Shown here one piece after another: positions 30,817 to 37,609 of a DNA stretch of 64,000 bases (its first letter is position 1; each line of letters opens with the position of its first letter). The position numbers and the translations under genes were made by a program. Source of the DNA: Vampirovibrio chlorellavorus (lineage in GTDB: Bacteria > Cyanobacteriota > Vampirovibrionia > Vampirovibrionales > Vampirovibrionaceae); NCBI RefSeq assembly GCF_003149375.1, contig NZ_QFWH01000002.1:186001-250000 (forward strand), written 5' to 3'. The notes below the pieces were generated by a model, which was not told the DNA's origin, did not search any database, and saw nothing but the letters and a program-made list of their open reading frames with translations.

Positions 30817-31845
30817 CTAGTGCCGCAGCAAGTAGTGCTGGTACCAGCCAATCAGATCGTTTCCCCAGTACAGGGACACCAGAATGCCGATAATCAGGGC
30901 CGGGCCCAAGGGTAAATAGGTAAAGGTCTGGGCGGTGCGCACCTGCTTGAGGAAGACCAATAGCGAAATCAGCGAGAGTATGAGGCAACCCAGGCTGATC
31001 CAGACCGTCGTTTCCGCGGGAAGCCCCGAGTTCATCAGTAACAGGGGACTGGTGCCACACCCCAGAGCGACCGCCCCGGAGATGAGAGAAACATATTGTT
31101 TGTTTTGAATCCATTGAAGGATCAGTAAGGGGATGGCTGGAATGGTTTGGGCCAGAAAGCCCAAGCCCAGCGCCAAAACCGTCAGTGGCCAGCCTAGAAA
31201 GGCGCCGGCGCCCATCATCAAAAAGGTGTCTCCGTGGCCAAACCCTTCCGTGCCAAAGAAGAACAGGGAAAGCAGAATCATGCCCTCAAAGAAAATCAGT
31301 GAAATCAACATGGCCCATAAGGCCGATATCAGGGCCTCGGGCACATGTAGCACCAACGCGCCTAAATCCACAGTAAAGGCCGTTCCCTCCATCCCGCCCA
31401 GATTCAGCAGGCTGTAAAGCAATCCGACGGGGATGAGCATGTAGATGGAGTTGAAGTTAAAAATCAGGCTTTCCCGCAGGTCGGTGATGAAAATGACAAT
31501 GAGGTTGGCAATCATGAACATTAAAAAGGCCGATTGCCAGTTCAGGCCAAAAAACCACACGGTAAAACAGAACAGGGCCCCTGTGGCCAGCTCAATCAGC
31601 GGATACTGAATGCTAATAGGAGCCTTGCAATTGTGGCATTTGCCCCCCAGCAGCAGATAGCTAAGGACCGGAATGTTATCAACAGGGCGTAGTTTGGTAT
31701 CGCACTTAGGGCAGTGAGAGGGGGGTAGCACAATGGGCTCATCGGCCAGAAAGCGCAGGGCCATAACGTTCAAAAAGCTGCCCACGCACAGCCCAATCAC
31801 AAAAATAAAGGGAATCCAGAAGGCCTGCGTAACGGGGTCAAACAC
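30817..31845 (-). CDS. pilD: Type IV prepilin peptidase (A24 family)
   Basis: This inner-membrane aspartyl protease removes prepilin leaders and often methylates the new N-terminus. The 342-residue protein has the full PilD-type N-terminal domain with two CxxC pairs (Cys45, 48, 70, 73) and the two catalytic Asp residues in ITDLRES (Asp122) and FGHGD (Asp206). Eight or so hydrophobic segments are visible. The presence of the methyltransferase-type Cys domain separates it from the shorter TadV. It probably serves the pilins of the Tad locus at 42-52 kb. A SigF-like gene lies 56 bases upstream. Confidence 0.9.
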   Translation of the reverse strand: MFDPVTQAFWIPFIFVIGLCVGSFLNVMALRFLADEPIVLPPSHCPKCDTKLRPVDNIPVLSYLLLGGKCHNCKAPISIQYPLIELATGALFCFTVWFFGLNWQSAFLMFMIANLIVIFITDLRESLIFNFNSIYMLIPVGLLYSLLNLGGMEGTAFTVDLGALVLHVPEALISALWAMLISLIFFEGMILLSLFFFGTEGFGHGDTFLMMGAGAFLGWPLTVLALGLGFLAQTIPAIPLLILQWIQNKQYVSLISGAVALGCGTSPLLLMNSGLPAETTVWISLGCLILSLISLLVFLKQVRTAQTFTYLPLGPALIIGILVSLYWGNDLIGWYQHYLLRH

Positions 31846-31901: not shown

Positions 31902-32792
31902 TTATGAAGAGGTCCCCTGATCCGCTTTCAGCGTTTGGGACAATAAATCCAGCGCTTTGCGCAACCGGCGGCTCACCTGCATTTGAGAGATACCCAGACG
32001 CTCGGCGATTTCGGTTTGGCTGAGGTCTTCGTAGTAGGTCATGGTGATGACATCCCGCAGATCGGGTTTCAGGTTGGCCATGGCCCGCTCAATGACCAGC
32101 CGGTTTTCATGGGTTTCCCGGAACTCGGTTTGGGCGTGGTCGACCAGTCGTTCCATGTAGACCGTTTCATTGCCGCCGTTGTCATTGACCAGATACTGAT
32201 CCAGCGAAACGGGCAGGCGGCGACGCTCAATGTCCTGGGCCTGGGTAATCTTGGTGACCGGGCATTGCAGTTCCTCGGCGATTTCCAGGTCGGTGGGGGT
32301 GCGCCCCAGATATTCGGTCAGCTTGTGGACAATCTGATTGATTCGGTAGTACAGCTCGTACATCTGCCGGGGGGCCTTGATCATGGCCGTTTTGTCCCGG
32401 AGGTAGTGGCGGATTTCCCCGGTAATGAAATAGGTGGCATAGGTTTTAAAGCTGGTGCCCACCAGGGGGTTGAATTTATCAATGGCTTTCAGCAGACCAA
32501 TATTGCCCACCTGAATCAGGTCTTCCACCGGATCGGAGCTGCGCCGGGCCAGTCCGTGGGCGATTTTTTTAACGTAAGGCATCACCCGGGCCACAATCTG
32601 GTCGCGCAATTTTTCTTTGCTTTGGGCGTCCAAATCGCAGCTGAGATAACTATGGAGCAAGTCTTCCAGATCGCTGGAGAAGATATCTTCCGAAGATGCT
32701 CTGGTAGGCGTACTGCTCACGAAGTCACCGTCCTCTAACTCACTCAGCTCTGGATAACATTCGCGGCTCTCCTGATGAAACGGGTCAAACAC
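31902..32792 (-). CDS. SigF/SigB-type group 3 RNA polymerase sigma factor
   Basis: The 296-residue protein is a group 3 sigma factor. A long acidic N-terminal part (1-65) precedes region 2 (about 70-150, VMPYVKKIAHGLARRS, DLIQVGNIGLLKAIDKFNP, SFKTYATYFITGEIRHYLRD), region 3 (about 155-225) and region 4 with a helix-turn-helix near the end (LSQTEIAERLGISQMQVSRRLRKAL). In Cyanobacteria the related SigF controls pili and motility, and here the neighbour is the prepilin peptidase. It has an extended -10 promoter. No anti-sigma gene is adjacent. Confidence 0.88.
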   Translation of the reverse strand: MFDPFHQESRECYPELSELEDGDFVSSTPTRASSEDIFSSDLEDLLHSYLSCDLDAQSKEKLRDQIVARVMPYVKKIAHGLARRSSDPVEDLIQVGNIGLLKAIDKFNPLVGTSFKTYATYFITGEIRHYLRDKTAMIKAPRQMYELYYRINQIVHKLTEYLGRTPTDLEIAEELQCPVTKITQAQDIERRRLPVSLDQYLVNDNGGNETVYMERLVDHAQTEFRETHENRLVIERAMANLKPDLRDVITMTYYEDLSQTEIAERLGISQMQVSRRLRKALDLLSQTLKADQGTSS

Positions 32793-35827: not shown

Positions 35828-35850
35828 TCGATCTTCTTCAAAACCATTCA

Positions 35851-35883
35851 AAAACCCGAGCCCTTTTTGCGGTTCGGGTTTTT
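35851..35883 (+). terminator. Terminator of rplU-rpmA
   Basis: AAACCCGA and TCGGGTTT pair over eight bases with a 14-base loop, followed by a run of six T. Confidence 0.85.
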
Positions 35884-35910
35884 TGTCGTAGGAGTTAGCA
35901 GAGAACGGGC

Positions 35911-36471
35911 TTATTGATTGGCCGATTTGCCCCGCTGAAAGCCAAAATGTTTTAAAGGGCTGTTGGGAGACGATGATGAGATGTTCAGCAATTCCCTTAA
36001 ATCGTTCACTTCATGGGCCAAATCCCGATCATTGACAGACAGGATACTCAGCAACTGCTCGGTTTCCTCCCGGCTTTGCTCCGGGTCGATACATTCTGCC
36101 GGCGTGGGGTTTGCGGTCAGCAGGGGAGACTCCGAGGCATTCTCCGAATCTTCCGGCCTGCCCGTGGTGAGGGGCTGGCTGGGGTCGGGAGGCCCCTCCG
36201 TTGCTGGAATGGATAATTCTGGAAGTTCCCCGAAATGGGCTTTATAGCGGGCCAATTCGTCAACCACGGCTTGATATTTGGCGATTGAAACCACTGCCGG
36301 GTCAGACGGGACGGTGGCACTGGTCAAGGGAGCATCGGCTTCCGGGGAAGACACCGACAGTCCGCCGCTCTTGGCATCGGCCTTTGAGAAGGACAAGTCT
36401 GGAGGGCGCTCTGGATTTCCGGGGGCAACGGTTTCAGGGTGTTGAGAGGTTTGGGCGGGATGGGCAGTCAT
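35911..36471 (-). CDS. Pro/Ser-rich, largely disordered protein
   Basis: The 186-residue product starts at the ATG at 36471, with no strong ribosome binding site. Residues 1-60 and 90-125 are rich in Pro, Ser, Thr, Ala and Glu and look disordered. Two short helices stand out: VVSIAKYQAVVDELARYKAHFG (about 59-80) and an acidic one near the end (EETEQLLSILSVNDRDLAHEVNDLRELL, about 133-160). A basic tail closes it. No signal peptide or membrane helix is visible. I recognise no family; a partner-binding role is only a guess. Confidence 0.5.
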   Translation of the reverse strand: MTAHPAQTSQHPETVAPGNPERPPDLSFSKADAKSGGLSVSSPEADAPLTSATVPSDPAVVSIAKYQAVVDELARYKAHFGELPELSIPATEGPPDPSQPLTTGRPEDSENASESPLLTANPTPAECIDPEQSREETEQLLSILSVNDRDLAHEVNDLRELLNISSSSPNSPLKHFGFQRGKSANQ

Positions 36472-36544
36472 CGATACAGGCTCATTTTTCTATAAGCTGT
36501 TTATCGACCGGTTGTTTTAAAAGTTTAGGGTTTTATTCCGAACA

Positions 36545-36803
36545 TCGTGGAATCCCCGTTCACCCTTCAAAGGGAGTGGCAGGGTGAAAGTGACTTTTCT
36601 CCCAGTGGTACGCCAGAAATTGAGAGGAAGTTCCTAGAATCAGCCATCCGACTGCTTGTTTTAATACAAGCACAGCCGGGCTCCCCGGCACAGGCTTTTC
36701 ACTGCTCTCTCTTCTTTCTCTCTGCCGGAGATGCTGAAGGCTCTGGTTCAGAATTCATCATCTCCTCCCCTGCTTGACCCACGAGCAGGGGTTTCTTTTC
36801 TTT
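36545..36803 (+). ncRNA. Candidate structured RNA with an H-type pseudoknot
   Basis: This gene-free 260-base interval folds strongly. TTCACCCT (36559-36566) pairs with AGGGTGAA (36581-36588). Its loop holds GGGAG (36572-36576), which pairs with CTCCC (36599-36603), forming an H-type pseudoknot with loops of 5, 4 and 10 bases. Further hairpins are TGCTTGT/ACAAGCA (36653-36672), GCCGGG/CCCGGC (36675-36689) and GGAGATG/CATCTCC (36727-36765, with CTGAA/TTCAG inside). A terminator closes it. A promoter may be TTGTTT-16-TATTCC near 36510. I could not match it to 6S, tmRNA, RNase P, SRP or riboswitch signatures known to me. A 76-codon frame here looks non-coding. Confidence 0.6.
36767..36803 (+). 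terminator. Terminator of the structured RNA
   Basis: CCCCTGC (36767-36773) and GCAGGGG (36785-36791) form seven G-C-rich pairs, followed by TTTCTTTTCTTTT. Confidence 0.8.
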
Positions 36804-36899
36804 TGACAGTCACCCATCCATAGCAAAGCACCCGCCAGCAGATGGGAACGGATTTCTCTCAATGCGGGGCGGGAGGCAGGCTGGTCTTGACTGCTTGGC

Positions 36900-37529
36900 C
36901 TACACGGAATGCGCTAGCCAGCGCAGCGATTCACGCAGGATGAGTTCCGAAGAATCGGGCGATGACTCGGCGGCGATGGCCTTGAAGCTGCGCTGGATTT
37001 CCTCGGGCTGATATCCCAGCGATAGCAGAACCGATTCCGCCTCCACGAATGCCTCAGAGGCGCCCTGAAACGTTTCGGCGCTGAGCTGGTTGGCAAAGTC
37101 CACCGTGCGCCAGTTCATCATCTTTTCCTTCAGCTCCAGGGTCATTTTTTGGGCCAGCTTGTTGCCCACCCCTTTGGCTTTGGTCAGGAGGTTGAAGTTG
37201 TTGGACACCACTGCCTGGGCGATTTCGGAAACGGACAAGGCGGACAGTAGAGAGAGCGCCACCTTGGTGCCGATGCCGGAGGCGCTTTGCAGAATATTGA
37301 AGAGATCCCGCTCTTCCTTGCTGTTGAAACCGACCAGAAACAGTGCGTCTTCCCGCACCACCAGGGTGGTAAACAATTGAACGGCCTGTCCGACGGGAGG
37401 GCTGCTCTCCACGGAACGCTGACTGGTCAGCACTTCAAAGCCCATGCCGTGCATATCCACCAGAAAATAAGCGCCCCGTGGGGATTCCAACGCTTTGCCA
37501 ACCAATTCGCCCTTGAGATACGACAGCAT
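36900..37529 (-). CDS. ruvA: Holliday junction branch migration protein RuvA
   Basis: RuvA binds four-way DNA junctions and recruits the RuvB motor. I chose the ATG at 37529 (MLSYLKGEL), which follows AGGAAG and matches the family start; an upstream TTG adds six residues. The 209-residue protein has an OB-fold domain (1-63), helix-hairpin-helix motifs (about 70-135, SGIGTKVALSLLS and KGVGNKLAQKMTLELK) and a C-terminal RuvB-contact domain (about 160-205, EAESVLLSLGYQPEEIQRSF). ruvB and ruvC are not nearby. Confidence 0.94.
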   Translation of the reverse strand: MLSYLKGELVGKALESPRGAYFLVDMHGMGFEVLTSQRSVESSPPVGQAVQLFTTLVVREDALFLVGFNSKEERDLFNILQSASGIGTKVALSLLSALSVSEIAQAVVSNNFNLLTKAKGVGNKLAQKMTLELKEKMMNWRTVDFANQLSAETFQGASEAFVEAESVLLSLGYQPEEIQRSFKAIAAESSPDSSELILRESLRWLAHSV

Positions 37530-37609
37530 GCTTTGCTTCCTGTTCAATTGATGTTGCCCATTATAGCGCCTATATTGCGCGCAAAGAAATCAGAGCGCAG
37601 GGATATTGG

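What the first reader, a model, noticed from the sequence alone, without database searches (positions are those of the whole stretch)
36545..36803. Candidate structured RNA with H-type pseudoknot
The 260-base gap holds an eight-pair stem whose loop pairs with a downstream CTCCC, three more hairpins and a strong terminator, all in order. The pseudoknot loops of 5, 4 and 10 bases are sterically reasonable. No signature of 6S, tmRNA, RNase P, SRP RNA or a known riboswitch was found by eye, and the next plus-strand gene is far. A free-standing regulatory RNA is the best reading.
Basis: partly seen in the sequence, partly recalled or inferred. Interest (0 to 1): 0.75.

Follow-up and report, generated by a model that had tools for sequence, protein, structure and literature searches.

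The report
Small RNA gene in Vampirovibrio
The stretch is most likely a real small regulatory RNA gene, found only in a few species of the algae-eating bacterium Vampirovibrio; its strictly conserved part is the 3' end, not the pseudoknot that first drew attention.

Summary
The intergenic stretch (36472-36899, Vampirovibrio genome) very probably encodes a free-standing + strand RNA ending at a strong terminator (36767-36804). Evidence is comparative only; no transcript data were available. Orthologues sit at the same place in two sister species, including V. chlorellavorus NCIMB 11383, and a diverged one in a third. The last ~90 bases are nearly invariant across the three close species, although neighbouring ruvA shows 30-39% change at four-fold sites. 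The remote species keeps the terminator stem through two compensatory pair changes and keeps a CCCAC loop. No Rfam family matches; no open reading frame is conserved; rplU-rpmA has its own terminator; 6S RNA has a candidate elsewhere.

The pseudoknot is present in this genome but is not what is conserved: it can be drawn in one relative with G-U pairs, not in another, and its arms lie in the fastest-evolving part.

Most likely action: a trans base-pairing sRNA using its C/U-rich linker (36700-36726) and terminator loop. A scan of 2,462 start regions found no target better than shuffles, so the mechanism is inferred. Lineage-restricted new member of a known kind.

The parts
36533..36804 (+). 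Proposed small RNA; the 3' end is set by the terminator, the 5' end is not determined (conserved upstream block starts about 36480)
   Evidence: Syntenic orthologues in G002 and G004 at 78-80% identity and a diverged one in G003; no Rfam match; no conserved reading frame
36715..36766 (+). 52-base stretch with no change in G000, G002 and G004: end of the C/U-rich linker plus the 3' hairpin
   Evidence: Longest invariant run of the alignment; ruvA four-fold sites differ by 30-39% between the same genomes
36727..36765 (+). 3' hairpin GGAGATG C TGAA GGC TCTG GTT CAGA A TTCA T CATCTCC
   Evidence: Same in the minimum-energy and centroid folds of all three close orthologues
36767..36804 (+). Intrinsic terminator: 10-pair stem, loop ACCCA, T-rich tail; C:G to A:U paired change at its base in G002/G004; G003 stem has two further compensatory changes with loop CCCCACU
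36700..36726 (+). Conserved C/U-rich stretch CACTGCTCTCTCTTCTTTCTCTCTGCC, candidate pairing (seed) region
   Evidence: Alignment A2/A3, one base change and a 2-base indel between species; unpaired in the centroid fold of G004 but largely paired in the centroid folds of G000 and G002
36653..36672 (+). Hairpin TGCTTGT-TTTAAT-ACAAGCA
   Evidence: 82% of cells paired across four species
36589..36635 (+).
   Evidence: RNAalifold on four species; 92% of cells paired, one change on both sides; low probability in single-sequence folds of G002, G003 and G004, so not settled
36559..36603 (+).
   Evidence: Present here, not conserved in G002
36501..36527 (-). SigF/sigma28-type promoter of the divergent gene: TAAACTTT-N11-GTCGATAA
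   Evidence: 16 of 16 consensus positions, 29 bases before the start codon; kept in G002, G004, G001 and roughly G003 (read)
35911..36471 (-). Divergent gene, 186 aa, no family match; only in G000, G002, G004 by sequence search
36900..37547 (-). ruvA, tail facing the RNA gene; used as synteny anchor

Best explanation
The locus encodes a free-standing small regulatory RNA of about 250-300 nt, transcribed on the + strand from the region shared with a divergently transcribed SigF-type gene and ended by the terminator at 36767-36804. Shown by sequence comparison: strong purifying selection on the RNA's 3' part, conserved 3' hairpin and terminator, conserved gene order, no coding. Inferred: that it is transcribed as a unit, and that it acts in trans by base-pairing with mRNAs through pyrimidine-rich elements (the C/U-rich linker 36700-36726 and the ACCCA terminator loop), probably near ribosome-binding sites. 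The variable 5' third would be a scaffold or species-specific part.
For: Orthologues only at the same place between rpmA and ruvA. Near-invariant 3' part against 30-39% four-fold-site change in ruvA. Paired C:G to A:U change at the terminator base and two compensatory stem changes with a kept CCCAC loop in G003. G003 middle part collinear with G004 beyond all 300 shuffles and all 130 window tiles. Upstream rplU-rpmA has its own terminator. No coding signal: 3 synonymous against 26 non-synonymous codon changes versus G002, 5 against 25 versus G004. Known sRNAs use C/U-rich linkers and terminator loops in this way: RepG (PMC8295292) and LhrC (PMC4132741).
Against: No transcript data. No convincing promoter on the + strand. 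No target in 2,462 start regions scores better than with shuffled RNA segments. The C/U-rich stretch is largely paired in the predicted folds of G000 and G002. No Hfq match in the family, although the same model did not ring in the cyanobacterial control either.
Confidence: 0.5

Rival explanations
1. The RNA is real but works by binding a protein (sequestering or guiding it), like 6S- or CsrB-type RNAs, rather than by pairing with mRNAs. Both arms of the 3' hairpin are fixed in sequence, as expected if a protein reads it.
For: Both strands of the 3' hairpin are invariant over 39 bases without any compensatory change; no mRNA target stands out.
Against: No Rfam match to any protein-binding RNA; a 6S candidate exists elsewhere; no repeated GGA loops of CsrB type are seen.
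Confidence: 0.25
2. The stretch is a 3' untranslated region, i.e. read-through of rplU-rpmA running antisense over the divergent gene to the terminator at 36791, or a 3'-end-derived sRNA of that transcript.
For: The terminator is the only plus-strand one that the scan found downstream of rpmA.
Against: A bidirectional terminator with long T runs lies directly after rpmA in G000, G002 and G004; the scan missed it because its loop is too long.
Confidence: 0.08
3. The stretch encodes a small protein (for example the 76-codon frame 36547-36777 or a 30-codon frame at 36731).
For: Open frames exist.
Against: Codon changes are almost all non-synonymous, gap lengths break the frame, and frames end differently in each species; the conserved block has no synonymous changes at all.
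Confidence: 0.04
4. The defining element is the H-type pseudoknot, making the 5' domain the functional core.
For: Watson-Crick pseudoknot of this size in only 21 of 2000 shuffles; G004 can form one at the same place with different bases (17 of 1000 shuffles).
Against: None in G002; per-pair conservation equals shuffles; the S2 strand competes with another helix; this is the fastest-changing part.
Confidence: 0.1

Closest known systems
Helicobacter pylori RepG sRNA
   Same: Free-standing intergenic sRNA with a pyrimidine-rich terminator loop that is the conserved, functional part (PMC8295292)
   Different: No sequence relation tested or expected; here the loop is only ACCCA/CCCCACU and no target is known
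Listeria LhrC sRNAs
   Same: C/U-rich motifs in a linker, a loop and the terminator loop; acts without needing Hfq (PMC4132741)
   Different: LhrC is about 111-114 nt and multicopy; this RNA is single-copy and about 250-300 nt, with no shown target
Cyanobacterial sRNA NsiR1 (RF02399)
   Same: Weak terminator resemblance (13.1 bits at 36744-36799)
   Different: Far below the gathering score of 39 bits and E 8.7; not a member
6S RNA (RF00013)
   Same: Widespread bacterial regulatory RNA of similar length
   Different: A 6S candidate lies elsewhere in this genome (contig C9, 30.7 bits, below cut-off); no match here

Membership tests
Any Rfam 15 family | Score at or above the curated gathering threshold | tested here: not met
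   Only a tRNA in the whole window; best matches in the region far below threshold
Trans-acting bacterial sRNA (generic class) | Intergenic, independent of flanking genes, with its own intrinsic terminator | tested here: met
Trans-acting bacterial sRNA (generic class) | Conserved as RNA, not as protein | tested here: met
Trans-acting bacterial sRNA (generic class) | Own promoter | tested here: inconclusive
   No sigma70 consensus found; the conserved upstream block is largely explained by the divergent gene's SigF-type promoter
Trans-acting bacterial sRNA (generic class) | Pairs with target mRNAs | tested here: inconclusive
   No target better than shuffles in 2,462 start regions
Trans-acting bacterial sRNA (generic class) | Transcribed as a discrete small RNA | not testable with these tools
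   No RNA-seq data available; no Vampirovibrio sRNA paper found
H-type pseudoknot RNA | Both stems kept in relatives through compensatory changes | tested here: not met
   69.2% cells paired vs 67.7% in shuffles; absent in G002; possible in G004 only with G-U pairs
6S RNA | Match to RF00013 | tested here: not met
   The only genome match is on contig C9, not here

The most novel reading that the evidence does not exclude
A new, genus-restricted riboregulator family of a predatory non-photosynthetic cyanobacterial lineage, with a sequence-fixed 3' hairpin read by a protein or by one essential target, divergently paired with a SigF-regulon gene and tied to the pilus/motility switch of the predatory life cycle.
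Probability: 0.1. Interest if true: 0.55.

Novelty: new member of a known kind. Interest (0 to 1): 0.33.

Why it matters
No small RNA of Vampirovibrio turned up in the papers searched. A single-copy RNA with a nearly invariant 3' domain in a cultured predator (V. chlorellavorus) gives a definite Northern, RNA-seq or deletion target. Its neighbour carries a SigF-type promoter of the kind that also precedes type-IV-pilin-like genes in this genome, so regulation of the predatory cycle is a testable, though unproven, link. The kind of element is ordinary: most bacteria have lineage-specific sRNAs.

Tried and rejected
Rfam at gathering and permissive thresholds: nothing relevant. Covariance model R1 over 382 genomes of the class: only the three close species; weak hits in G009 (17.2 bits, behind a pyrG-like gene) and G299 (14.5 bits, one hairpin) were judged chance. 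Model R2 including G003, over the order: only four species; a G008 hit near ruvA lies inside a coding gene and was rejected. G001 has the same gene order, but no detectable homologue there. Long-range helix GAGAGGAA/TTTCTCTC, favoured with three species, is not kept in G003 (read). The apparent excess of AGGAGATGATGAATTC sites over the reversed pattern agrees with the rough random expectation (about 21 per genome by my own estimate) and with codon bias. Target scan negative. Read-through from rpmA, coding, and 6S readings rejected.

Full report
What was checked. The pseudoknot arms are at 36559-36566/36581-36588 and 36572-36576/36599-36603; the terminator is at 36767-36791 with a T-rich tail; the 259-nt stretch folds better than 199 of 200 dinucleotide shuffles, z -3.0. 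The gap is truly intergenic: the divergent gene 35911-36471 and ruvA 36900-37547 are both on the minus strand. Rfam gives nothing at its own thresholds and only far-sub-threshold matches when relaxed.

Relatives. A search of 39 genomes found the DNA only in two of the same genus, G002 and G004, at 78-80% identity. In both it has the same neighbours, ruvA and the divergent gene. By contig match these are a Vampirovibrio sp. MAG and V. chlorellavorus NCIMB 11383. A covariance model built from the three found no further convincing member in 382 genomes of the class. Two other species, G001 and G003, keep the gene order. The G003 gap holds a diverged homologue: its middle part aligns collinearly with G004 better than all 300 shuffles and better than 130 tiles of the window, and it ends in a terminator. 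The G001 gap shows nothing. A second model that includes G003 again found only these four.

What selection holds. Across G000, G002 and G004 the run 36715-36766 (52 bases) and the run 36768-36790 (23 bases) do not change at all, while ruvA four-fold sites differ by 30-39% pairwise. Position 36767 and its partner change together from C:G to A:U. In G003 the terminator stem differs but still pairs; comparing stems from the loop outwards, two pairs change on both sides and the loop keeps CCCAC (pair comparison by eye). This is the signature of an RNA, read in the + direction, because the T run follows the hairpin on that strand only. The open frames overlapping it are not conserved: 3 synonymous against 26 non-synonymous codon changes versus G002, 5 against 25 versus G004, with frame-breaking gaps.

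The pseudoknot. A Watson-Crick pseudoknot of this size is uncommon in shuffles (21 of 2000), but with G-U pairs half of all shuffles have one. On the alignment its pairs are kept no better than in shuffles, though the alignment is uncertain in this fast-changing part. G004 can form a same-position pseudoknot with other bases and several G-U pairs (17 of 1000 shuffles do as well), G002 cannot. A different helix, 36589-36601 with 36622-36635, pairs in 92% of cells over four species with one change on both sides. It overlaps the S2 strand, so the two exclude each other; it is also weak in single-sequence folds of three species. The 5' two thirds therefore have no settled structure; the pseudoknot is possible in this genome but is not the family's hallmark.

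Context. rplU-rpmA upstream on the + strand has its own bidirectional terminator at 35850-35885 in G000 and the same in G002 and G004, so read-through is unlikely. The conserved block 36480-36532 is largely accounted for by the divergent gene's SigF/sigma28-type promoter, TAAACTTT-N11-GTCGATAA, a 16-of-16 match 29 bases before its start codon. No + strand promoter is evident, so the RNA's 5' end is unknown.

Mechanism. The most likely reading is a trans-acting sRNA that pairs through pyrimidine-rich elements: the linker 36700-36726 and the terminator loop. RepG and LhrC work that way. This step is inference. I assembled 2.72 Mb of the 2.79 Mb genome from stretches, called 2,462 genes with a simple ORF caller, and compared seven RNA segments with their start regions; no segment gave better best-hits than its shuffles. 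Hfq was not found, but the same model did not ring in the cyanobacterial control genome either, so this says little. In predicted folds of G000 and G002 the C/U-rich stretch is largely paired. A protein-binding role remains a serious rival because both arms of the 3' hairpin are fixed in sequence.

Verdict. A real, lineage-restricted small RNA is very likely (about 0.85, inference from comparison); the base-pairing mechanism is about even. It is a new member of a known kind, of modest interest.

Noticed in passing
window 36501-36527 (-), 31902-32792 (-), 30817-31845 (-): A perfect SigF/sigma28-type site precedes the divergent gene; genome-wide, other top-scoring sites precede type-IV-pilin-like genes (GFTLAELLISL...), and a SigF-like sigma factor gene and a prepilin peptidase gene lie side by side in this window, suggesting a SigF-pilus regulon.
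   Followed up: partly
L030 / L022 (G000 contig C9, 111270-111457): Probable divergent 6S RNA, 30.7 bits, below the Rfam cut-off but covering the whole model.
   Followed up: partly
   Followed up: yes
L028 1312-2076; similar proteins seen in L023 and L024: In relatives, the place next to ruvA carries a zinc-ribbon protein resembling the YvyF flagellar-region protein (30 bits, below cut-off); the window's divergent gene may be a shortened or unrelated replacement.
   Followed up: partly
L024 2030-2130: The G003 gap is longer upstream than in the other species; this extra part was not explained.
   Followed up: no
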